In this document: positions 1-14,730 of the stretch, one piece after another
How the letters are laid out: the number at the start of each line of letters is the position of its first letter
Position numbering within the stretch: the stretch's first letter is position 1
DNA from: Gammaproteobacteria bacterium
GTDB taxonomy: Bacteria > Pseudomonadota > Gammaproteobacteria > Steroidobacterales > Steroidobacteraceae
NCBI GenBank assembly: GCA_030043215.1
Contig: JASHYG010000306.1
Location: 1-15,177 of the forward strand
Length of the DNA stretch: 15,177 nucleotides
Direction: 5' to 3'
Notes under the pieces: generated by a model
Told to the model about the DNA's origin: nothing
Database searches by the model: none
The model's input: the letters and a program-made list of their open reading frames with translations, nothing else
Position numbers and translations under genes: made by a program

Positions 1-1722
1 GTTGGCGAGGTAGTAGTCGTTCGTGTCCTGCAGCGGCTGCTTGTCCGGGGCCAGGACGAAGTCGTTCCAGCAGGAGGCGAGGATGGACGCAATAGCCGGT
101 TTGCAGACGTCGCACCCCAGGCCCTTGCCGTGCTTCGCGAGCGCATCGGCGAAGCTCTTGAGGCCGCCCACGCGGACGAGATGGAACAGCTGCTGCCGCG
201 AGTACGGGAAGTGCTCGCAGAGACGGGTATCGACCGCCATGCCGCGGCGCTTGAGCTCCACGTTGAGAATCTGCGTGACGAGCGTCGCGCAGCCGCCGCA
301 CGTCGTCGACGCCCGGGTCTTTGTCTTGATCGCGCCGAGAGTGGTGCAGCCCTGCTCGACGGCCGCGCAGATCGCCTGTTTGCTGACGTTGTTGCAGGAG
401 CAGATCTGGGCGGAGGGCGCCAGCGCCGCGAGACCCGTTGGAGCCTCCACACCGCCGCGCGCCCCGGCCGCGCCGGACGCGCCAGCCGCCCCGCCGCCCG
501 CCGCGGGCAGGATCAGCTCCTCGGGGCGCTCGGGCAGCGGCAGGCCGTTGAGCATCATCTGCAGCCATACGCCGAAGCTCTCCGCGTCCCCGACCAGCAC
601 GCCGCCGAGGAGGCGACGTCCGGACTCATCCACCACGAGCTTCTTGTAGAGCTGCCGGCGCTCGTCCACGAACGTGTAGCACTGCGCGCCGGGAGACGCC
701 GCATGCGCATCGCCGATCGATGCCACGTCCACGCCGAGCAGTTTGAGCTTCGTGCTGAGATCGGCGCCCGTGAAGCGCACCGCGGCACCGGCGGTAGGCG
801 CCTTGGCGCCTGCGATGTGCGCCGCGGCGACTTGCGCCATCTGGTAGCCCGGCGCCACGAGTCCGAAGGCCTTTCCGTTCCACAGGGCGCACTCGCCGAT
901 CGCGTAGATCGACGGATCGGACGTGCGGCAGGCATCGTCGATCACGATGCCTCCGCGCTCGCCCACCTCGAGACCGGCGCTGCGGGCGAGCGCGTCGCAG
1001 GGGCGGATGCCGGCGGAGAAGACGATCAGGTCAATCTCGAGCTCGGAGCCGTCGGTGAAGCTCATGCGGTGCCGCGCGCCCGTGCCCGCGGAGATCTCGC
1101 GCGTGCTCTTGCCGGTGAGCACATGCACGCCGAGCGCTTCGATCTTTCGGCGCAGCAGCGCGCCGCCCAGCTCGTCGACCTGCAGCGCCATCAGGCGCGG
1201 CGCGAACTCGACGACGTGTGACTCGAGCCCGAGGTCGCGCAGGGCCTTTGCCGCCTCGAGCCCAAGCAGGCCGCCGCCCACCACGGCGCCCGAGCGCGCG
1301 TCCCGCGCGGCGCCTCGAATGGCTTCCAGGTCCTCGAGCGTGCGATAGACGAAGCACGCGGGGCGATCCCGTCCGGGCACCGGTGGAACGAAGGGATACG
1401 ATCCCGTCGCCAGCACCAGCGTGTCGTAGGCCGCCTCGCGGCCGAGCGCCGTGCGCACGAGCTTCGACTCACGGTCGATGCCGGTGACGCGCTCGCTCAG
1501 ATGCAGAGCGATGCCGTGACGCTCGAAGAAGTCCGGCGGCGCGAGTGCGAGGTCGCCGGCTGTCTTGCCGTTGAAAAAGCTCGAGAGCCGAACGCGATCG
1601 TACGCCGCGCGGCTCTCCTCGGCGAACACGGTCACATCGAGGTTGGCCGAGCTTTCCGCCAGCGCCTCGAGGAAGCGCTGGCCGACCATTCCGTTGCCGG
1701 CGACGACGATCTTGCCCTGCAT
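1..1722 (-). CDS. nirB: Nitrite reductase [NAD(P)H] large subunit NirB, 3' end cut off by the window
   Basis: This is the large subunit of the cytoplasmic siroheme nitrite reductase, which reduces nitrite to ammonium with NAD(P)H. The first 574 residues are visible; the family is usually about 800-850. Seen in order: an N-terminal FAD site (GNGMVG near residue 10), an NAD site (GGGLLGLEAA near 150), and an Ala/Gly-rich linker near 405-430. A BFD-type [2Fe-2S] domain follows with C441/C443 and C475/C478, then a second BFD-like segment with C502 (CEHFPYSR) and C537/C540 (GCDVCKP). The sequence ends at DTNDYYLAN, the usual lead into the nitrite/sulfite reductase ferredoxin-like half domain, so the siroheme/4Fe-4S part lies outside. 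ATG at 1722 is preceded by GAGGAAGGA with 9 nt spacing. A terminator and a sigma-54 promoter lie upstream, and nasT diverges. The small subunit nirD and a nitrate reductase would be expected further left, but that is inference. Confidence 0.95.
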   Translation of the reverse strand, partial: MQGKIVVAGNGMVGQRFLEALAESSANLDVTVFAEESRAAYDRVRLSSFFNGKTAGDLALAPPDFFERHGIALHLSERVTGIDRESKLVRTALGREAAYDTLVLATGSYPFVPPVPGRDRPACFVYRTLEDLEAIRGAARDARSGAVVGGGLLGLEAAKALRDLGLESHVVEFAPRLMALQVDELGGALLRRKIEALGVHVLTGKSTREISAGTGARHRMSFTDGSELEIDLIVFSAGIRPCDALARSAGLEVGERGGIVIDDACRTSDPSIYAIGECALWNGKAFGLVAPGYQMAQVAAAHIAGAKAPTAGAAVRFTGADLSTKLKLLGVDVASIGDAHAASPGAQCYTFVDERRQLYKKLVVDESGRRLLGGVLVGDAESFGVWLQMMLNGLPLPERPEELILPAAGGGAAGASGAAGARGGVEAPTGLAALAPSAQICSCNNVSKQAICAAVEQGCTTLGAIKTKTRASTTCGGCATLVTQILNVELKRRGMAVDTRLCEHFPYSRQQLFHLVRVGGLKSFADALAKHGKGLGCDVCKPAIASILASCWNDFVLAPDKQPLQDTNDYYLAN

Positions 1723-1745
1723 GGCTCGCGGTCCTTCCTCGTTGC

Positions 1746-1804
1746 AAAAAAAAGCGCCGACCGAAATCGTGCCACGGGGGCTCGTGGCACGAGATCGGCG
1801 GCGC
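1746..1804 (-). terminator. Intrinsic terminator (attenuator) in the nirB leader
   Basis: Read on the minus strand, this is a stem of three perfect segments (GCGCCG/CGGCGC, CCGA/TCGG and the 9-bp CGTGCCACG/CGTGGCACG). It has a 6-nt loop (AGCCCC), a 3x3 internal loop and one bulge, and is followed at once by eight U. It ends only 23 nt before the nirB ATG and just upstream of its ribosome-binding site, so it must be read through for nirB to be expressed. NasT/NasR-type ANTAR proteins are known to antiterminate at such leaders in nitrate assimilation operons, and nasT is the divergent neighbour. The hairpin is seen; control by NasT is inferred. Confidence 0.9.
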
Positions 1805-1881
1805 TGCCGTGGCGGGCCGAGATTGGGCCCACCCTCGCGACGAGCCCGAGGGGACGAACTCGTCCAAGCGAGGATCGACGA

Positions 1882-1897
1882 TGCAACCCGTATGCCA
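1882..1897 (-). promoter_or_regulatory. Sigma-54 (-24/-12) promoter for nirB
   Basis: The minus strand reads TGGCATACGGGTTGCA. GG and GC are separated by exactly 10 nt, and the TTGCA -12 element is perfect; the consensus is TGGCACG-N4-TTGCW. The predicted start site is near 1871, giving a leader of about 149 nt that contains the terminator. Two other sigma-54-like sites in this cluster share the pattern. The -24 element deviates at two positions (TGGCATA), so this is weaker than the narK site. Confidence 0.72.
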
Positions 1898-2022
1898 CGC
1901 CGCCCGCGGCCCGGAGGAAGCTCTCCCCGCCGCGCATACAAGGACTTACGGCGAATCACGCGGACACCGCGCCCTGGAGGGCCCGCCCGCCGACCTGAGA
2001 TGGGGCAACGGGAAGCCGCGGC

Positions 2023-2037
2023 GCACGATGTTCGTGC
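2023..2037. promoter_or_regulatory. Palindromic enhancer-like site, probable NtrC-type UAS shared by nirB and nasT
   Basis: GCACGATGTTCGTGC is a perfect inverted repeat around a 3-nt centre. It matches the NtrC half-site arrangement GCAC-N7-GTGC. It lies about 159 nt upstream of the predicted nirB start and about 119 nt upstream of the predicted nasT start, within the usual range for bacterial enhancers. A 13/15 match occurs at 3945-3959 upstream of narK. NtrC as the binding protein is inferred; another sigma-54 activator is possible. Confidence 0.62.
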
Positions 2038-2122
2038 ATCGCGGGCTGAGCCCGTGCGCCTGCGGCGTCGCCTCGCCCGGCGATTTCGCGGGACCCGTGA
2101 GTGCGAGCCCCGCCGGCGAGAT

Positions 2123-2138
2123 CGGCACGAGCGTTGCA
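2123..2138 (+). promoter_or_regulatory. Sigma-54 (-24/-12) promoter for nasT-nasS
   Basis: CGGCACGAGCGTTGCA has the invariant GG-N10-GC spacing and a perfect TTGCA. It shares GGCACG-N2-CGTTGCA with the narK promoter. The predicted start site is near 2149, which would leave the ATG at 2151 almost leaderless. It favours the in-frame ATG at 2166, preceded by GAGAG. Confidence 0.68.
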
Positions 2139-2165
2139 ACCTCCCGGCTCATGAGCGAGAGCGGC

Positions 2166-2753
2166 ATGAGGATTCTGCTGGTCGACCAGAACATATTGCG
2201 GGCGTCCGTTCTGGAGGAGGGCCTGCGCGAGGCGGGCTGCGCGGACGTGATCGTGGTCCGCGACATGCAAAACCTGCTGCGCCGGATTCTCGATGCCGAT
2301 CCGGATGTGATCTTCATCGATCTCGCGAACCCCAACCGGGATGTCCTCGAGCAGATGTTCCAGGTCTCGCGCAGCGTGCGGCGGCCGATCGCCATGTTCG
2401 TGGACCGGTCGGACACCGACATGATCGCCGCCGCTGTGGATGCGGGCGTCGGCGCCTACGTCGTCGATGGACTGAAAAAGGAGCGGGTGAAGTCCATTCT
2501 CGAGCTCGCCGTGAGCCGCTTCCACGCGTTCAACCGCATCCGCGACGAGCTCGAGCACGCGAAGCAGGCGCTCGAGGACCGCAAGATCATCGATCGTGCG
2601 AAGGGGATCCTCATGAAGGAGCGCAGCCTCACCGAGGAGGAGGCCTATGCGCTGCTGCGCAAGGCGGCGATGAACGAGAACCGGCGGCTCGCCGAGGTGG
2701 CGCAGAGCCTGCTCACCGCGGCGCGGCTGCTGAGGTCGCCCGATCTGAAATGA
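2166..2753 (+). CDS. nasT: NasT, ANTAR-domain RNA-binding response regulator (antiterminator)
   Basis: This 195-residue protein opens with MRILLVDQN, as NasT proteins do. A receiver-like domain (residues 1-120) keeps the acidic D7 and a phospho-acceptor-position D52 (FIDLANP). It is followed by a helical coiled linker and a C-terminal ANTAR domain at about 138-190 (DRAKGILMK and EEEAYALLRKAAM). In the family, NasT is held inactive by NasS; nitrate releases it, and it binds leader RNA to prevent termination of assimilation operons. The start at 2166 is chosen because the sigma-54 site predicts transcription from about 2149 and GAGAG precedes this ATG; ATG 2151 is the alternative. The stop overlaps the nasS ATG. 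Both leader terminators (nirB, narK) are likely targets. Confidence 0.92.
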   Translation: MRILLVDQNILRASVLEEGLREAGCADVIVVRDMQNLLRRILDADPDVIFIDLANPNRDVLEQMFQVSRSVRRPIAMFVDRSDTDMIAAAVDAGVGAYVVDGLKKERVKSILELAVSRFHAFNRIRDELEHAKQALEDRKIIDRAKGILMKERSLTEEEAYALLRKAAMNENRRLAEVAQSLLTAARLLRSPDLK

Positions 2754-3931
2754 ACCCTGCTATCCGGAGGCGCGCGCGGGATATGATCAAAGTGGGCTTC
2801 ATGCCGCTGCTCGACGGCGCATCGCTGGTCGCGGCCGCCGAGCGGGGCTTCGCGGCCGAGGAAGGCGTCGAGCTCACTCTCGTCCGCGAGACCTCGTGGG
2901 CCAACATCCGCGACCGCACGATCATCGGACACTTCGATGCTGCGCACATGCTCGGGCCGATGGCCGTCGCCTCGACGCTCGGGATCGGGCACGTGCGCGT
3001 TCCGCTCGTCGCGCCGTGCGCGCTCGGTCTCGGCGGCAATGCCATCACCGTCTCAGTCGCGCTGTGGGAGCAGATGGCGGCGGCCGGGGCGGCGGTGGGC
3101 GGTACCGCGGCCGCGCAGGGCGCCGCGATGCGCGCGGTCGTGATGGGACGGGAGCGGGCCGGGCGCGAGCCGCTCACTTTCGGCACGGTCTATCCCTTCT
3201 CCTCCCACAACTACGTGCTGCGCTACTGGCTAGCCGGCAGCCGCATCGATCCGGATCGCGATGTGCGTCTCGTCGTGATTCCACCGCCATTCCTGGTGGA
3301 CGCGCTGCGCGCGGGCCAGATCGACGGCTTCTGCGTCGGCGAGCCGTGGAGCAGCGTTGCCGTGCAGGCCGGCGCCGGCGTGATGCTCATGGCGACCACC
3401 GCCATCTGGCCGCAGAGCGGCGAGAAGGTGCTCGGATGCCGCCGCGAATGGGCCGAGAGCCACCCGCAGGAGCTCGCGGCGCTCGTGCGCGCGATCCACC
3501 GCGCCTCCTCGTGGTGCGAGCAGCCCGAGAATCATGCCGAGCTCGCGCGGATTCTCGCGGAGCCTCGCTACGTCGGCACGGCCGCCGAGCTGCTGCGCAG
3601 CGCGCTCGCGAGCCGCTTCGTGCTGTTGCCCGGCTGCGCGGCTCGACACGTCGAGGGATTCTTCTCGGCGGCGAGCCACGATGCGACCTTTCCGTGGACC
3701 AGTCACGCCCTGTGGCTCTACACGCAGATGGTGCGCTGGGGCCAGGTGATGCATTCCGGGGAGAATGCCGCCGCCGCGCGCCGCACCTATCGCCCGGATC
3801 TCTATCGCCACGCCGTCGATCCGCTCGGCGTACGGCTGCCGGACGAGGACTCGAAGATCGAGCGCTTCTTCGACGGTGGCGTGTTCGATCCCGCCGCCCT
3901 CACCGAGTACCTCGAGCGCCAGAGCCGCTGA
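2750..3931 (+). CDS. nasS: NasS, cytoplasmic nitrate/nitrite sensor (NrtA/CmpA-like)
   Basis: This 393-residue protein is of the NrtA/CmpA nitrate-binding family. It has no signal peptide or lipobox, which marks the regulator NasS rather than a periplasmic transport subunit. Family-typical segments seen are GHFDAAHMLGPMAVAS, TFGTVYPFSSHNYVLRYW, IPPPFLVDALRAGQIDGF and VGEPWSS. In known systems NasS binds NasT without nitrate and lets it go when nitrate is bound. The ATG at 2750 overlaps the nasT stop (ATGA), implying coupled translation and matched amounts of the two partners. ATG 2783 (MIKVGFMP), 12 nt after GGAGG, is an alternative start. No transporter permease or ATPase gene adjoins it, again favouring a sensor role. 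Confidence 0.92.
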   Translation: MNPAIRRRARDMIKVGFMPLLDGASLVAAAERGFAAEEGVELTLVRETSWANIRDRTIIGHFDAAHMLGPMAVASTLGIGHVRVPLVAPCALGLGGNAITVSVALWEQMAAAGAAVGGTAAAQGAAMRAVVMGRERAGREPLTFGTVYPFSSHNYVLRYWLAGSRIDPDRDVRLVVIPPPFLVDALRAGQIDGFCVGEPWSSVAVQAGAGVMLMATTAIWPQSGEKVLGCRREWAESHPQELAALVRAIHRASSWCEQPENHAELARILAEPRYVGTAAELLRSALASRFVLLPGCAARHVEGFFSAASHDATFPWTSHALWLYTQMVRWGQVMHSGENAAAARRTYRPDLYRHAVDPLGVRLPDEDSKIERFFDGGVFDPAALTEYLERQSR

Positions 3932-3944
3932 GCCGGGCGGCGGC

Positions 3945-3959
3945 GCACGATCTGCGTGC
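3945..3959. promoter_or_regulatory. Palindromic enhancer-like site upstream of narK
   Basis: GCACGATCTGCGTGC follows GCAC-N7-GTGC and differs from the site at 2023-2037 at only two central positions. It is about 154 nt upstream of the predicted narK start, close to the 159 nt for nirB. Equal spacing and sequence make chance unlikely. An NtrC-type activator is inferred. Confidence 0.6.
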
Positions 3960-4031
3960 GTGCGGCCGCCTGTTGCCCCTCGTCGAGTCACGGATGCGCG
4001 CGTGAGTGGCGGCATGCGCCGCCTCGCCGTG

Positions 4032-4056
4032 CGCTTAAGTATCTGGTCCGTAAGCG
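4032..4056. repeat. Inverted repeat CGCTTA-N13-TAAGCG upstream of narK
   Basis: A perfect 6-bp inverted repeat with a 13-nt spacer lies between the enhancer-like site and the sigma-54 promoter. It could be an operator or part of a bend site. I recognise no regulator consensus, and a 6-bp repeat can occur by chance. Confidence 0.3.
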
Positions 4057-4079
4057 ATCCCGGCCTTGCGGGGGTGTTG

Positions 4080-4095
4080 TGGCACGGTCGTTGCA
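4080..4095 (+). promoter_or_regulatory. Sigma-54 (-24/-12) promoter for narK
   Basis: TGGCACGGTCGTTGCA matches the sigma-54 consensus TGGCACG-N4-TTGCW at every defined position, with the required GG-N10-GC spacing. The predicted start site is near 4106, giving a leader of about 140 nt. An enhancer-like palindrome lies at a suitable distance upstream. It is the best of the three sigma-54 sites in this cluster. Confidence 0.83.
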
Positions 4096-4169
4096 CCGGT
4101 CCTCCCGTGCCGGATGGCATCCCCCGCCGGCATGAGGCAGGTCTCAAGACCGGATCTGCTGGAGGCAAC

Positions 4170-4221
4170 GCCGCCAACCGTACGCATTTGCGGCATGCGT
4201 ACGAGTTGGCGGCATTTTTTT
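4170..4221 (+). terminator. Intrinsic terminator (attenuator) in the narK leader
   Basis: GCCGCCAAC pairs with GTTGGCGGC and CGTACGCAT with ATGCGTACG. Together they make an 18-bp stem with one bulged A and the 7-nt loop TTGCGGC, followed by A and seven T. It ends 24 nt before the narK ATG, inside the leader downstream of the sigma-54 promoter. It cannot be the nasS terminator alone, since narK transcription must pass it. Antitermination by NasT under nitrate is the likely release, inferred from the family and from the matching nirB leader. Confidence 0.9.
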
Positions 4222-4245
4222 GCTCACTTGGGCAGGAGAGTCTCG

Positions 4246-5700
4246 ATGAGCCGTCTGATGGCGTCCCTGCGCAGCGGAAACTGGAAGTCCCTGATCGCCT
4301 GCTTCGTGTACTTCGACACGGGATTCACGGCGTGGGTCCTGTTCGGACCGCTCGCCCCATTCATCGCGAGGCAGATCTCCCTGTCGCCCGCGCAGTCGGC
4401 GTTCCTCGTGGCCGTGCCGGTGCTCGCCGCGTCCATCGTCCGGGTGACGCTCGGCAATCTGTTTCAATGCGTCGACGGCAGGCGGCTCGCCCTGCTCGGC
4501 ATCACGCTCTCCTCCGTCCCCTCGCTCGTGCTCCTCACGCCCGTGACGCCGGGCTACGACCTGTTGCTCGTTCTCGGAGCGTTCCTCGGCGTGGGAGGCG
4601 CCAGCTTCGCGATCGCGTTGCCCATTGCGGGCAGCAGCTATCCGCCGCGCGTGCAGGGCCTGGTGCTCGGACTCGCCGCAGCGGGCAACGTAGGAGCGGT
4701 GCTCGACGGATTCCTGCTCCCCGGGCTTGCCGAGCGCTTCGGCTGGCGGAGCGCGACGGCTGCGGTGCTGCCGCTGCTCGCGCTCGCCGCGGCGGCCATG
4801 TTGCTCTGGGCGCGCGATGAGAGCGCGAAGAGCGGCAGCGTGGCGCGTGCCTTCGCCGGGCTCGCGGCCGCGTTCACGGGTCTCACCGCGCTGGTTCTCC
4901 TCGTGAGCGGCGGCGCGCTCGGCTCGCAGGAGAGGGGACAGCTGCTGCTGCCGCTGCTCGGCGCTCTGCTCGCCCTCGCCGTTCTTCCCCGCAAGTACCT
5001 CGCCGTCCTCGCGGAGCGTGACGCCTGGGTGCTGATGCTGGTGTACAGCATCACCTTCGGCGGATTCGTCGGCATGTCCTCGTACGTGAGCTTGCTGCTC
5101 ACCACTCAATATGGGATCTCGAAGGTCCATTCGGGGCTCGTGATGGGCGTGCTCTCCTTCACCGGCGCCATGGTCCGCCCGGTCGGAGGACTCATCGCCG
5201 ATCGCGTCTCGGGCGTGCGGGCGTTGCTCGTGGTGCTGCTCGGCGTCGCCTTTGCGAATTTCGGGTTCGCGACGCTCATGCCGTCCTTGAGCGGCGGCAT
5301 CGCGCTGCTTGCCACGCTCTATCTTTGCTTCGGGCTCGGAAACGGAGCGGCGTTCCAGCTGGTCCCCCACCGCTGGAAGGAGCAGACCGGACTGATGACC
5401 GGCATCATCGGCGCGGCGGGAGGCATCGGCGGCTTCTACCTGCCGGTGGTGATGGGAATCGCGCGGCAGGGCACGGGCAGTTACCAGCTCGGCTTCGCCG
5501 TCTTCGGGGCGCTCGCCGCGCTTGCGTTCGTGCTGGTGGTCACCTTGCGCGAGCGCTGGCTCGTCTGGGCGCTTCCGCAGGATGCGAGCGCACGCCTCGA
5601 GGTGCCGGCCGCGAGCGGCAAGTGCGCCCGGAGCGCCGGCGTACTAAGCTCCCCCCATGAGTCCCTCACCGCTTGCCGGACGAACGATCGCGGTGCCTGA
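4246..5700 (+). CDS. narK: NarK/NasA-family MFS nitrate/nitrite transporter
   Basis: This 484-residue inner-membrane protein has about 12 hydrophobic helices. Nitrate-porter signatures are present: GGASFAIALP with SSYPPRVQGLVLGL at about 115-145, and GNGAAFQLVP followed by GAAGGIGGFYLP at about 362-400. Candidate substrate-binding arginines are R66 in TM2 (SIVRVTLGN) and R311 (MVRPVGG). In assimilatory clusters such proteins import nitrate and may exchange nitrite. ATG 4246 is chosen because AGGAG lies 7 nt upstream; the frame is open back to 4066, but that part is leader and terminator. The C-terminal tail after residue 450 is hydrophilic and unconserved-looking, and its last 44 nt overlap the next gene. 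Expression probably needs both sigma-54 activation and antitermination. Confidence 0.93.
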   Translation: MSRLMASLRSGNWKSLIACFVYFDTGFTAWVLFGPLAPFIARQISLSPAQSAFLVAVPVLAASIVRVTLGNLFQCVDGRRLALLGITLSSVPSLVLLTPVTPGYDLLLVLGAFLGVGGASFAIALPIAGSSYPPRVQGLVLGLAAAGNVGAVLDGFLLPGLAERFGWRSATAAVLPLLALAAAAMLLWARDESAKSGSVARAFAGLAAAFTGLTALVLLVSGGALGSQERGQLLLPLLGALLALAVLPRKYLAVLAERDAWVLMLVYSITFGGFVGMSSYVSLLLTTQYGISKVHSGLVMGVLSFTGAMVRPVGGLIADRVSGVRALLVVLLGVAFANFGFATLMPSLSGGIALLATLYLCFGLGNGAAFQLVPHRWKEQTGLMTGIIGAAGGIGGFYLPVVMGIARQGTGSYQLGFAVFGALAALAFVLVVTLRERWLVWALPQDASARLEVPAASGKCARSAGVLSSPHESLTACRTNDRGA

Positions 5701-6508
5701 GACTCGCGAGCTCGACGTCTTCGCCGGGTTGCTGGAGCGCCGGGGCGCAAGCGTGCTGCGCTGTCCGCTGGTCGCCATCCGCGACGCGCCGGACCCCGCG
5801 CCGGTGCTCGCGTGGGCCCGCCGGATCTCGGAGGGCGCCTGCGACGACCTCATCCTGCTCACCGGCGAGGGCCTGCGCAGAATCATCGGGTGCATCGAGC
5901 GACACGAGCCTTCCTTGAGAGCGCCGTTCGTTCGCGAGCTCGGACGGGTACGGAAGATCACGCGCGGCCCGAAGCCGGCGCGCGCGCTGAGGGAGCTCGG
6001 GCTCGGCACCGACCTTCCCGCCGAGCCGCCGACCACGGCGGGGATCATCGGCACGCTGCGCCGGGTGGATCTCGCAGGCCGCCGCGTCGGCTTGCAACTC
6101 TACGGCACCGAGCCGAACCGGCCTCTCATCGAGTTCCTGAGCGGCGCCGGCGCGAGCGTCCTGCCGGTCGCCCCTTACGTCTATGCCGACGAGGCCGATG
6201 ATCGGGCTGTCCGCGCGCTGCTCGAGCGGATGGCGTCGGGCACGGTGGATGCCATCGCATTCACCAGCACGTCGCAGGTGGAGCGCCTCTACTCCGCCGG
6301 ACTCGGGCACCTCGTCAGCCAGGCGCTCGGCAAGACCCTCGTCGCGGCCGTGGGGCCCGTCGTGGCGGCTGCGCTCGAGGCTCGCGGCGTCCGCGCTGAC
6401 GTGATGCCGGCCGGATCCTTCTTCCTGAAGCCGCTCACCGCGGCGCTCGAGAAGGCGCTGGCAGGCTCACGCGGCGTCCCGGCCGGCGAACGCCAGCCGG
6501 GGCCCTAG
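5657..6508 (+). CDS. hemD: Uroporphyrinogen-III synthase (HemD-like)
   Basis: This 283-residue protein resembles the HemD family, which closes and rearranges hydroxymethylbilane to uroporphyrinogen III, the precursor of heme and siroheme. Seen: an N-terminal LAGRTIAVPETRE, the mid-protein segment GRRVGLQLYGTEPN at the start of the second half, the family-typical DAIAFTSTSQVERL, and GPVVAAALEARGV near the C-terminus. This two-lobed layout is usual. ATG 5657 lies inside the end of narK (44-nt overlap) without a clear Shine-Dalgarno, so translation is probably coupled to narK. Because nitrite reductase needs siroheme, a dedicated copy in the nitrate operon makes sense. Whether it is the cell's only HemD cannot be told. 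Confidence 0.85.
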   Translation: MSPSPLAGRTIAVPETRELDVFAGLLERRGASVLRCPLVAIRDAPDPAPVLAWARRISEGACDDLILLTGEGLRRIIGCIERHEPSLRAPFVRELGRVRKITRGPKPARALRELGLGTDLPAEPPTTAGIIGTLRRVDLAGRRVGLQLYGTEPNRPLIEFLSGAGASVLPVAPYVYADEADDRAVRALLERMASGTVDAIAFTSTSQVERLYSAGLGHLVSQALGKTLVAAVGPVVAAALEARGVRADVMPAGSFFLKPLTAALEKALAGSRGVPAGERQPGP

Positions 6509-7239: not shown

Positions 7240-8037
7240 CTACGCCGCAAGCGTGATGCTGACGGGGCAGTGATCGCTTCCCATCACCTCGGGATGGATC
7301 TCCGCGGCTGTCACGGCGCTGCGCAGCTGCGGCGAGACGAGAACGTAGTCGATTCTCCACCCGACGTTGCGCGCCCGCGAGTTGGCGAAGTGGCTCCACC
7401 ACGTGTAGTAGCCCTTGCCTTGCTTGTAGAGGCGCAGCGTGTCGATGAAGCCGGCATCGATCAGGTTCTGGAATCCCGCGCGCTCCTCGTCCGTGAACCC
7501 CTTCTTGCCGCGATTGGGCCCGGGGTTGGCGAGATCGAGCTCCGTGTGGGCGACGTTGAGATCCCCGCAGAACACGACCGGCTTGCGCCGCTCGAGCTGC
7601 TTGCAGTAGAGGAGAAAGGCGGGGTCCCACTGCCGGTGTCGCAGCGCGAGCCGGCTCAAGTCGTCCTTGGCGTTCGGCGTGTAGACGGTGACGACGTAGA
7701 GCTTCGGGAATTCCGCTGTGATGACGCGGCCTTCCTCGCTGCTGTCCCGCTCGAGCTCGTCCGCGAACTTGAACCGCTCGGCGAAGACCCGCGGAAAGCC
7801 GTTGATCACCGAGAGCGGCTCGGCCTTGGAGAAGATCGCGGTCCCCGAGTAGCCCTTCTTCACCGCGGAGTTCCAGTACTCGTGATAGCCGGCGAGATCG
7901 ATCTCGATCTGGCCGCGCTCGGCCTTGGTCTCCTGCAGGCACAGGACGTCGGGGCGATGCGTCTCCATGAAGCTTTGAAACAGCCCCTTCTTCAGCACGG
8001 CTCGAATGCCGTTCACGTTCCAGGAGTAGATTCTCAT
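7240..8037 (-). CDS. xthA: Exodeoxyribonuclease III (AP endonuclease, EEP family)
   Basis: This 265-residue protein matches the ExoIII/ExoA family length. It repairs abasic sites by cutting 5' to the lesion and also has 3'-5' exonuclease and 3'-phosphatase activity. Motifs seen: MRIYSWNVNGIRA with N7, LQETK with the metal-binding E36, YTPNA, the active-site GDLNVAHTELDL, the DNA-contact NVGWRIDYVLVS, and the terminal GSDHCPV with the catalytic Asp-His. GGAAG lies 8 nt before ATG 8037. It is first in a likely two-gene unit with can and is divergent from radC across a 171-bp gap. Confidence 0.95.
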   Translation of the reverse strand: MRIYSWNVNGIRAVLKKGLFQSFMETHRPDVLCLQETKAERGQIEIDLAGYHEYWNSAVKKGYSGTAIFSKAEPLSVINGFPRVFAERFKFADELERDSSEEGRVITAEFPKLYVVTVYTPNAKDDLSRLALRHRQWDPAFLLYCKQLERRKPVVFCGDLNVAHTELDLANPGPNRGKKGFTDEERAGFQNLIDAGFIDTLRLYKQGKGYYTWWSHFANSRARNVGWRIDYVLVSPQLRSAVTAAEIHPEVMGSDHCPVSITLAA

Positions 8038-8208: not shown

Positions 8209-8883
8209 ATGGCGATTCGTGAATGGCCGAAGGCCGAGCGGCCGCGTGAGAAGCTCCTCGATCGCGGCTCGGAGGCCCTATCGGACGCGGAGCTGATCGC
8301 GATCCTGCTCGGGTCCGGAGTACGAGGCAGCTCCGCCGTCGATCTGGCCCGCAAGCTGATCGAGCGGTTCGGCTCCATCCGCGAGCTGCTGAGGGCGGAC
8401 CGCAGCGAGTGCCTGAGCCAGCTCGGCCTGGGCCCCGCGCGCTATGCGCTGCTCCGCGCGGCGCTCGAGCTCGCCCGGCGCCATCACCTCGATCGGCTGC
8501 GGGCCGGACCCCTGGTCTCGAGCCCCGAGACGACACGGGAATTTCTGCTCTCGCAGCTTCGCGACCGGCCGTATGAGGTCTTCTGCTGCCTGCACCTGAA
8601 CGCTCGACACCATCTCATTGCGTTCGAGGAGCTGTTCCGTGGCACGATCGATGGAGCGAGCGTGCATCCGCGAGAAGTCGTCAAGGCAGCTCTGGCGCGA
8701 AACGCGGCGGCGGTGATTCTTGCCCACAATCACCCTTCCGGAGTCGCCGAGCCCAGCCACGCCGACGAGCTCATTACCAACCGTCTGCGGGACGCCCTGG
8801 CGCTGGTAGACATCCGGGTGCTGGACCATCTCGTGGTTGGTGACGGGCTCTGTATGTCCTTCGCGGAACGGGGGCTGCTCTGA
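8209..8883 (+). CDS. radC: RadC family protein (UPF0758, JAB/MPN domain)
   Basis: This 224-residue protein has the normal full length of the family. The N-terminal half holds the helix-hairpin-helix-like part ([16 protein letters not shown]). The C-terminal half is the JAB/MPN metalloprotease-like domain with H173-N-H175-P-S-G and D186. The historical link to DNA repair is weak, and the biochemical role is unsettled; mobile-element relatives act in anti-restriction loci, but this is the chromosomal type. GAGGTG lies 5 nt before ATG 8209. It is divergent from xthA. A hairpin lies after its stop. Confidence 0.94.
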
Positions 8884-9841: not shown

Positions 9842-13767
<3,926 letters not shown>

Positions 13768-13771
<4 letters not shown>

Positions 13772-14730
13772 GCGCGGAGTCTCCCCTGCGGCTGCTGCTC
13801 GTCGAGGACGAGCCCACGCAGCTCCTGCTGATGCAGCGGCTGCTGCGCCGCGCGGGCTATGCCGTCGAGACCGCCGCCAACGGCGAGGAGGCCTTCGAGA
13901 AGATCTCGACGGGCCGGATCCAGATGATGGTCACCGACTGGGACATGCCCGGCATGGACGGGGTGACGCTGTGCCAGCGCGTGCGCGAGGCGCAGTCGCA
14001 GCTGCCCGGCTATCTCTACGTCCTGCTCCTCACGGGCCATGGGTCCACGGAGAGTCTCGTCACCGGGCTGGAGGCGGGCGCCGACGACTACATCCGCAAG
14101 CCGCCGAACGAGGCGGAGCTGCTCGCGCGCCTGAAGGCCGGACAGCGCGTCGTGCGGCTCGAGCAATCGCTGCGGGAGGCGAACGAATTGCTGCGGGACG
14201 CGAACGAGCAGATCAAGCTCCTCTCGATCACCGATCCGCTCGTCGGCACCTTCAACCGCCGCTATCTGAACGATCAGCTGATCCACGAGGTGGAGCGCGC
14301 GCGGCGCTATGGGCGCCCGCTCGCCGCGGTCATGGCGGATCTCGACTTCTTCAAGAAGATCAACGACGAGCACGGGCATCAGGTCGGAGACGATGTCCTG
14401 CGTGGCTTCGTCGATCTCGCCAAGTTCTCGATCCGCCAGTCGAGCGACTGGGTCGCGCGCTACGGCGGCGAGGAGTTCGTCGTCGTGCTTCCCGAGACCG
14501 ACCTCGGAGGCGCGGCGAAGACCGCCGAGAAGATCCGCAGCTACTGCGCCACCACGCCGTTCGCGACCGCTGCCGGCGGGATCGTCGTCACGGCGAGCTT
14601 CGGCGTCGCCTCCCTCGATGCCGGCGGCTCCATCGCCGCCGCGGCCGAGGCGCTCCTGCGCCAGGCGGACGGCGCGCTCTACCGCAGCAAGCACGAAGGG
14701 CGCAATCGCGTCACCGTCGCCGGACCCTGA
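13768..14730 (+). CDS. Response-regulator diguanylate cyclase (REC-GGDEF)
   Basis: This 320-residue protein makes c-di-GMP from two GTP when activated. The receiver (about 5-125) has the acidic pair in LLVEDEPTQ and D57 (TDWDMPGMDG). A heptad-like linker (EQSLREANELLRDANEQ) joins a GGDEF domain with DLDFFKKINDEHGHQVGD and the active-site GGEEF at 233-237, a functional variant. The inhibitory RxxD site is displaced: the sequence reads RQSSD before WVARYGGEEF, with Q where Arg is expected. The start ATG 13768 overlaps the kinase stop, so the two are co-translated and the HPt of the kinase is the likely phosphodonor. The longer frame from 13738 lies inside the kinase gene and adds nothing recognisable. 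Confidence 0.93.

What the first reader, a model, noticed from the sequence alone, without database searches (positions are those of the whole stretch)
1746..4245. Two matched attenuators (nirB and narK leaders) next to nasT-nasS
Both leaders carry an 18-19 bp intrinsic terminator with a 7-8 nt U-tract placed 23-24 nt before the ATG. Both have about 65 nt between the predicted start site and the terminator. Matched geometry in oppositely oriented transcripts flanking nasT-nasS suggests one NasT-NasS switch controlling two transcripts, reductase and transporter. The hairpins are seen; NasT control is inferred from the family.
Basis: partly seen in the sequence, partly recalled or inferred. Interest (0 to 1): 0.72.

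Follow-up and report, generated by a model that had tools for sequence, protein, structure and literature searches.

The report
Paired nitrate-sensing RNA switches
Two messenger-RNA leaders, one before a nitrite-reductase gene and one before a nitrate-transporter gene, each carry a built-in stop signal that a nitrate-released protein probably overrides; the design is known from other bacteria, but here the first of its two usual docking hairpins has lost its signature letters.

Summary
Both leaders carry a strong intrinsic terminator (18 and 21 bp; U7 and U8) ending 24 and 23 nt before the ATGs of narK and nirB; these are the only T-runs of 6 or more in the window. The interpretation gains direct support: each terminator's 5' arm holds an ANTAR P2 hairpin, GGC-A(A/G)CGCC-GCC, with the A1/G4 hexaloop that ANTAR proteins read. 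Both leaders follow sigma54 promoters with an NtrC-type site (GCAC-N7-GTGC) 135-140 nt upstream; a sigma54-like site without attenuator precedes nasT. Relatives carry such leaders before nirB, narK, nrtA, hemD and once nasT. Best reading: an AND gate of nitrogen limitation (NtrC/sigma54) and nitrate (NasS releasing NasT).

The switch type is known (Pseudomonas nirBD leader; narK and nirA under NasT in Bradyrhizobium). What departs is P1: its stem is kept, but the A1/G4 hexaloop is missing in both window leaders and present in 3 of 33 distinct Steroidobacteraceae-type leaders against 31 of 36 alphaproteobacterial ones. One relative's predicted start leaves no room for P1. NasT's loop-reading residues are nearly all kept. 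Nothing was tested at the bench.

The parts
1..1722 (-). nirB, NADH-dependent nitrite reductase large subunit (5' part; cut by the window edge)
   Evidence: TIGR02374 680.8 bits, over its cut-off 578.35
1746..1753 (-). U8 tract of the nirB-leader terminator
1753..1805 (-). intrinsic terminator hairpin of the nirB leader (21 bp, -41.4 kcal/mol); its 5' arm holds the P2 loop
1797..1808 (-). ANTAR P2 hairpin GGC-AGCGCC-GCC (hexaloop A1, G4), exclusive with the terminator
1811..1833 (-). P1 hairpin of the nirB leader, GGUGGGCC-CAAUCUC-GGCCCGCC: 7-nt loop, no A1/G4 hexaloop
   Evidence: as strong a hairpin in 0.4% of 500 shuffles
1882..1897 (-). sigma54 promoter of nirB, TGGCATACGGGTTGCA
2023..2037 (.). 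NtrC-type palindrome GCACGATGTTCGTGC between the divergent nirB and nasT promoters
2123..2138 (+). sigma54-like site before nasT, CGGCACGAGCGTTGCA (11 of 12), no attenuator
2166..2753 (+). nasT, receiver plus ANTAR antiterminator
   Evidence: PF03861 E 2.5e-21, PF00072 E 1e-07; P0001 starts three codons upstream of this ATG
2783..3931 (+). nasS, NMT1/NrtA-like nitrate sensor
   Evidence: PF13379 E 3.3e-76
3945..3959 (.). NtrC-type palindrome GCACGATCTGCGTGC upstream of the narK promoter
4080..4095 (+). sigma54 promoter of narK, TGGCACGGTCGTTGCA (12 of 12)
4136..4160 (+). P1 hairpin of the narK leader, GGCAGGUCU-CAAGACC-GGAUCUGCU: 7-nt loop, no A1/G4 hexaloop
   Evidence: as strong a hairpin in 5% of 500 shuffles
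4164..4175 (+). ANTAR P2 hairpin GGC-AACGCC-GCC (hexaloop A1, G4), exclusive with the terminator
4170..4213 (+). intrinsic terminator hairpin of the narK leader (18 bp, -33.2 kcal/mol); also lies downstream of nasS
4215..4221 (+). U7 tract of the narK-leader terminator
4246..5700 (+). narK-family nitrate/nitrite MFS transporter
   Evidence: TIGR00886 253 bits, below its cut-off 311.7; PF07690
5657..6508 (+). hemD, uroporphyrinogen-III synthase; overlaps the end of narK, so probably in the same transcript (siroheme supply for NirB, inference)
   Evidence: PF02602 E 8.2e-33

Best explanation
Each leader is a NasT-controlled transcription attenuator fed by an NtrC/sigma54 promoter. Under nitrogen limitation NtrC activates sigma54 RNA polymerase at nirB, nasT-nasS and narK-hemD. 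Without nitrate, NasS holds NasT; the nirB and narK transcripts fold the terminator and stop before the ATG. With nitrate or nitrite, NasS lets NasT go; NasT binds the short P2 hairpin (hexaloop A1, G4), which uses bases of the terminator's 5' arm, so the terminator cannot form and transcription runs on. The narK terminator may also end nasT-nasS. Shown by sequence: promoter elements, upstream sites, terminators, the P2 target, their conservation. Inferred: binding, antitermination, the nitrate and nitrogen responses. P1 is kept as a stem without the canonical loop, so NasT probably acts mainly through P2, with P1 in a weaker or sequence-independent role (inferred, less sure).
For: P2 with A1/G4 lies inside both terminators. 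Forcing P2 costs 14.6 (narK) and 16.1 (nirB) kcal/mol of local folding, so a protein should be needed to hold it. A scan blind to P2 (sigma54 plus terminator; window and L005-L024) gave 15 rows in the Steroidobacteraceae-type loci: 13 promoter-terminator pairs, all with GGCA(A/G)(C/T)GC(C/T)GCC, one row that pairs the L005 promoter with a later T-run, and one weak hairpin in L013 without P2; of 5 rows in alphaproteobacterial loci, L024 has the box and four, with poor sigma54 matches, do not. Best tblastn hit behind 77 leader rows: narK-like 39, nrtA 13, nirB 11, nasS/NrtA-like 7, nasT 1, hemD 1, unassigned 5 (most narK hits in alphas are at 24-28% identity; three rows, L029 -, L030 at 7885 and L058 at 6876, look spurious). 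GCAC-N7-GTGC lies within 250 nt upstream of the promoter in 19 of 25 leaders; other spacings 0-3; mononucleotide shuffles mean 0.16, reversed control 0. A sigma54-like site precedes nasT in 15 of 18 loci. NasT has the only ANTAR domain found in the assembly. In 150 family genomes model R1 matches 13 of the 16 with a NasT hit and 13 of the 134 without. Same-type control elsewhere: PMC4724949, PMC3795266, PMC5424462, review PMC12830290.
Against: No binding or transcript data. P1 fails the A1/G4 rule in both leaders, although P1 was required in the eut system (PMC3369931). Thirteen family genomes have a model match but no NasT hit at E 1e-30; several are incomplete, but G022, 96% complete, has a leader before hemD with only a nasT remnant beside it. 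Of 15 loci fetched for model matches that I inspected, 6 showed no P2 box. One counted leader, L171, precedes an M16 peptidase gene. RpoN was not found in the window's own 63% assembly, though it is in 2 of 4 genomes of the genus; NtrC-like proteins there are below the family cut-off. R1 and most leader counts come from a finder that required the P2 box. Other spacings of GCAC/GTGC also occur in the window, N10 three times.
Confidence: 0.86

Rival explanations
1. Ordinary boundary terminators: the hairpins only end other transcripts and are not regulated.
For: The narK hairpin follows nasS in the same direction and could end nasT-nasS. No Rfam family matches at threshold.
Against: No gene seen in the window runs into the nirB hairpin: it lies between a divergent sigma54 promoter and nirB. 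Both hairpins sit between a promoter and an ATG, carry the ANTAR box, and recur before nitrate genes in relatives.
Confidence: 0.06
2. Attenuators controlled by another ANTAR or RNA-binding protein, with nasT-nasS nearby by coincidence.
For: Eight genomes of the family carry a second NasT-like response regulator at 36-39% identity. Thirteen family genomes have a model match but no NasT hit at E 1e-30.
Against: One ANTAR domain was found in the window's assembly, that of NasT (63% complete). Such leaders flank nasT-nasS on both sides in the window, L006, L005 and L016.
Confidence: 0.05
3. The canonical dual-hexaloop mechanism is intact and P1 is read in some form that folding hides, for example a 7-nt loop with one base flipped out.
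For: A P1 hairpin of -8.8 kcal/mol or better is predicted in 31 of 33 leaders. Both window P1 loops contain AA (CAAGACC, CAAUCUC). Apart from G4 the EutV contacts described are largely to the backbone (PMC8934654).
Against: No A1/G4 hexaloop with a 3-bp stem exists within 45 nt upstream of P2 in either window leader; the same search finds one in 5 of 33 family leaders and 32 of 36 alphaproteobacterial ones. Loops of 3, 6 and 7 nt occur within the genus. L019 has 2 nt between predicted +1 and P2.
Confidence: 0.3

Closest known systems
NalA, the nirBD leader RNA of Pseudomonas (NasT, sigma54/NtrC)
   Same: sigma54/NtrC-started leader of nirBD with a terminator that NasT overrides (review PMC12830290, passages seen). 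The primary papers it cites (Romeo 2012; Nie 2024) were not read; Nie 2024 was looked up and is not held.
   Different: Here a second leader of the same type serves narK-hemD on the other side of nasT-nasS. NalA's own P1 loop was not compared.
NasS-NasT control of narK-bjgb-flp-nasC and nirA in Bradyrhizobium
   Same: One NasS-NasT pair controls a transporter operon and a nitrite-reductase gene; lacZ fusions in nasT and nasS mutants (PMC4724949, passages seen).
   Different: There the two targets lie about 2 Mb apart and NirA is ferredoxin-dependent; later work found narK up-regulated in a nasT mutant under denitrifying conditions (PMC6759348, passages seen).
ANTAR dual-hexaloop antiterminator (EutV, NasR, AmiR)
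   Same: P2 hexaloop A1/G4 overlapping an intrinsic terminator, P1 hairpin just upstream (PMC3369931, passages; PMC8934654, abstract, passages and two sections).
   Different: P1 lacks the A1/G4 hexaloop here.
Paracoccus nasA leader with hairpins HI and HII
   Same: NasT binds the leader RNA; HI needed for activity, HII linked to attenuation (PMC3795266, passages; PMC5424462, passages).
   Different: Single leader behind nasTS for nasABGHC. There the upstream hairpin HI is needed; here the loop of the upstream hairpin has drifted.

Membership tests
ANTAR dual-hexaloop target RNA | P2 hairpin with hexaloop A1, G4 overlapping the terminator | tested here: met
   Both leaders.
ANTAR dual-hexaloop target RNA | P1 hairpin with hexaloop A1, G4 | tested here: not met
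   7-nt loops CAAGACC and CAAUCUC; no A1/G4 hexaloop hairpin within 45 nt.
ANTAR dual-hexaloop target RNA | Short linker between P1 and P2 | tested here: met
   3 and 2 nt.
NasT-regulated attenuator leader | Cognate NasT and NasS genes | tested here: met
   2166-2753 and 2783-3931.
NasT-regulated attenuator leader | NasT keeps the residues that contact the hexaloop in EutV | tested here: met
   K143, Y164, R168, M172, N173, R177 identical by script; R142, K149, E160 identical by eye on the alignment; K147 is R and R175 is N.
NasT-regulated attenuator leader | NasT binds the RNA and gives nitrate-dependent read-through | not testable with these tools
   Needs purified protein or mutants.
NtrC/sigma54 promoter | -24/-12 element | tested here: met
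   4080-4095 and 1882-1897 exact; 2123-2138 with one mismatch.
NtrC/sigma54 promoter | Upstream NtrC-type palindrome | tested here: met
   2023-2037 and 3945-3959; 19 of 25 leaders. That GCAC-N7-GTGC is the NtrC consensus is recalled, from no call.
NtrC/sigma54 promoter | RpoN encoded in the genome | tested here: inconclusive
   Not found in the 63% assembly; present in 2 of 4 genomes of the genus.

The most novel reading that the evidence does not exclude
In this family NasT antitermination has become a P2-only switch: NasT reads the single hexaloop inside the terminator, while the upstream recruitment hairpin keeps its stem but no longer carries a readable loop, and in one relative (L019/L127) the sigma54 start site leaves P1 out altogether. 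This would be a natural test of the single-hexaloop model proposed from the EutV-RNA structure.
Probability: 0.4. Interest if true: 0.6.

Novelty: new variant of a known kind. Interest (0 to 1): 0.45.

Why it matters
It turns a guess about two hairpins into a complete, testable circuit (NtrC-type site, sigma54 promoter, ANTAR target, terminator) in a little-studied family. The family also supplies a natural series, from canonical P1 through drifted P1 to no P1, with the same kind of P2 and a nearly unchanged reading pocket in NasT. Whether ANTAR proteins need both hexaloops is unsettled: eut genetics says both are needed (PMC3369931), while the EutV structure paper takes a single hexaloop as the minimal binding unit but still has the dimer contact each in turn (PMC8934654). 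These leaders make that directly testable. Leaders also persist when the transporter behind them is exchanged (NarK, NrtA-like, a divergent NarK-like MFS) or lost.

Tried and rejected
Rfam: no usable match. The generic promoter/terminator scan listed neither hairpin and does not cover sigma54 sites. A riboswitch reading was dropped: no Rfam hit, and the conserved part is the ANTAR box. RNAalifold on the 25-leader alignment recovered only five terminator pairs, because loops and middles differ in length; P1 was therefore judged leader by leader. A class-wide search for NasT (369 genomes) gave only 3 genomes besides the window's own at E 1e-50; their leaders, read by eye, show A1/G4 P1 and P2. 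A CTTAA/TTAAG motif upstream of the promoters was looked for and found in 2 of 25. Plasmid homologues are mostly rhizobial and were not taken further. Fisher's test on P1 (p 4e-11) ignores relatedness; many alphas are Mesorhizobium.

Rows left out of the P1 count: 6 inspected model-match loci without a P2 box (L161, L162, L163, L165, L166, L167); three model matches never inspected (G136:C179, G124:C40, G120:C135); the L016 nirB leader, seen only; duplicates of one locus fetched twice; and finder rows whose box was not GGCA..G..GCC. In one search duplicate and pattern-only loci were dropped before counting.

Full report
What is there. The window holds nirB (minus strand, cut by the edge), nasT, nasS, a narK-family transporter and hemD. 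Between nirB and nasT, and between nasS and narK, lie two leaders of 118 and 109 nt from predicted start to U-tract. Each has, in order, a sigma54 -24/-12 element, a P1 hairpin, a 2-3 nt linker, a P2 hairpin and an intrinsic terminator that reuses part of P2, then U8 or U7 and the ATG 23-24 nt on.

More than chance. In this 69% GC window the only T-runs of 6 or more on either strand are these two; shuffles give 0.023 runs of 7 or more. The exact sigma54 pattern occurs 9 times in the 2.49-Mb assembly (reversed control 1) and two of the nine are these promoters. The P2-box-plus-T-run pattern occurs only at these two places in the assembly, with 0 reversed-control matches. P1 hairpins as strong as the observed ones occur in 5% (narK) and 0.4% (nirB) of 500 shuffles.

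The P2 target. Both terminators begin inside GGC-A(A/G)CGCC-GCC, a 3-bp hairpin with a hexaloop that has A at position 1 and G at position 4. That is the element ANTAR proteins read, and its overlap with the terminator is the published mechanism (PMC3369931, passages). Forcing P2 costs 14.6 and 16.1 kcal/mol, so it should form only when held by protein. A scan that asked only for sigma54 plus a terminator (window and L005-L024) gave 15 rows in the Steroidobacteraceae-type loci: 13 promoter-terminator pairs, all with the same kind of P2 box, one row pairing the L005 promoter with a later T-run, and one weak L013 hairpin without P2. Of 5 rows in alphaproteobacterial loci only L024 has the box.

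The promoters. A sigma54-like site also lies before nasT (2123-2138, one mismatch), with no terminator; 15 of 18 nasT loci of relatives and window have such a site, one of them (L014) with an attenuator. The palindrome GCAC-N7-GTGC, recalled as the NtrC site, occurs twice in the window: between the divergent nirB and nasT promoters, and 135 nt before the narK promoter; its placement, not its number, is what counts, since other spacings occur too (N10 three times). Within 250 nt upstream of the promoter it occurs in 19 of 25 leaders; other spacings occur in 0 to 3, and mononucleotide shuffles average 0.16. So nitrogen status most likely gates all three transcripts and nitrate gates two of them. 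RpoN was not found in the window's own 63%-complete assembly but is in 2 of 4 genomes of the genus; NtrC-like proteins are present below the family cut-off.

Relatives. The call for related loci kept 80. Leaders were found before nirB, narK-like MFS, nrtA, hemD and nasT (77 rows by best tblastn hit, low identity for most alphaproteobacterial narK hits, 5 unassigned, three rows that look spurious). Two leaders flanking nasT-nasS, as in the window, occur in L006, L005 and L016. The second leader keeps its place while the transporter behind it changes: NarK in the window and L006, NrtA-like in L007, L009, L016 and L132, a NarK-like MFS below the family cut-off in L005. In G001 of the same genus both leaders persist about 530 bp apart while no nirB, nasT, nasS or narK was detected in the 15 kb around, tatC abuts one leader and hemD follows the other. 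In G022 a leader precedes hemD with a nasT remnant beside it. In 150 family genomes, model R1 (built from 25 leaders, which match it by construction) matched 26; 13 of the 16 genomes with a NasT hit matched, against 13 of the 134 without; one of the 16, G134, has only the more distant NasT-like protein. Of 15 model-match loci inspected, 9 had the P2 box and 6 did not.

P1, the departure. In the alphaproteobacterial set P1 is a hairpin with an A1/G4 hexaloop in 31 of 36 distinct leaders, most often AAUGGC. In Steroidobacteraceae-type leaders it is 3 of 33 (loops by minimum-energy folding, tetraloops opened by one pair). P2 was required to have A1 and G4 in this set, so the P1-P2 contrast leans on the P2-blind scan. 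Three leaders from other gammaproteobacterial families, read by eye, have A1/G4 P1, so loss in this family is the likely direction. Both window P1 loops are 7 nt. In G026 the loop is 3 nt. In L019/L127 the predicted +1 lies 2 nt before P2, leaving no P1. The NasT residues aligned to the EutV hexaloop contacts are kept, K143, Y164, R168, M172, N173 and R177 by script and R142, K149 and E160 by eye; K147 is R and R175 is N. P1 hairpins of -8.8 kcal/mol or better are predicted in 31 of 33 leaders, so P1 may still help by shape.

How it compares. NasT antitermination of a sigma54/NtrC-started nirBD leader is reported for Pseudomonas (review PMC12830290, passages; primary papers not read). One NasS-NasT pair acting on a transporter operon and a nitrite-reductase gene is shown in Bradyrhizobium (PMC4724949, passages), with a later result that complicates narK (PMC6759348, passages). 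NasT binding to a leader is shown in Paracoccus (PMC3795266, PMC5424462, passages). In the eut system deleting P1 abolished induction (PMC3369931), while the structure paper takes a single hexaloop as the minimal binding unit and P1 as a recruitment hairpin, with each hexaloop contacted in turn (PMC8934654, abstract, passages and two sections). NasR binds a single hairpin with poorer affinity (PMC7496416, passages). The listed parts of searches (16 of 16, 20 of 166, 20 of 37, 19 of 19, 12 of 989 and 12 of 57 papers) showed no title or abstract start on NasT leaders in Steroidobacteraceae or on NasT leaders with a degenerate P1; subscription papers are mostly not held.

Verdict. The pair is very probably a NasT-type attenuator pair within an NtrC/sigma54 circuit. 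The kind is known; the P1 departure makes it a variant worth a bench test.

Noticed in passing
L117 (G001), 7741-7840 - and 8299-8389 +: Same-genus genome with both leaders intact about 530 bp apart but no nirB, nasT, nasS or narK detected in the 15 kb fetched; tatC abuts one leader and hemD follows the other. The orphan leader could be a relic or make a short terminated RNA.
   Followed up: partly
L118 (G026), 1-6000: nasT and the nirB leader are kept while nasS and narK were not detected in the 6 kb fetched; if nasS is absent from the genome, NasT would be unrestrained.
   Followed up: partly
L014, leader at 7843 before nasT at about 8001; L120 (same genome, G087): A P1-P2-terminator leader precedes nasT itself, suggesting autoregulation; nasS is not adjacent, but a nasS-like gene with a short nasT remnant before it lies behind narK elsewhere in that genome.
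   Followed up: partly
L158 (G022): A leader precedes hemD, with only a nasT remnant (residues 16-68) upstream of it.
   Followed up: partly
L007, L008, L009, L132, upstream of nirB: In Steroidobacter-type loci the nirB leader has a sigma54 site and a P1-like hairpin with an A1/G4 loop near +1 (clean in L007; interrupted stem, read by eye, in the others) but no P2 box and no T-run of 5 or more: a P1-only counterpart.
   Followed up: partly
L157 and L160: NasT-type leaders precede a two-domain ABC ATPase gene; ModF (molybdate) is among its best matches, below the family cut-off.
   Followed up: partly
L171 (G004:C161): A leader-like element with sigma54 site precedes an M16 peptidase gene, not a nitrate gene.
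   Followed up: partly
L135, G411: Leader with apparently three ANTAR hexaloops in a row (AAUGAA, AACGCG, AACGGC) before the terminator, read by eye.
   Followed up: no
window 13738-14730 +: Receiver-GGDEF response regulator near the cluster; a review reports c-di-GMP inhibition of NasT function.
   Followed up: no
G114, G122, G084, G105, G044, G073, G128, G134: A second NasT-like response regulator at 36-39% identity, target unknown.
   Followed up: no
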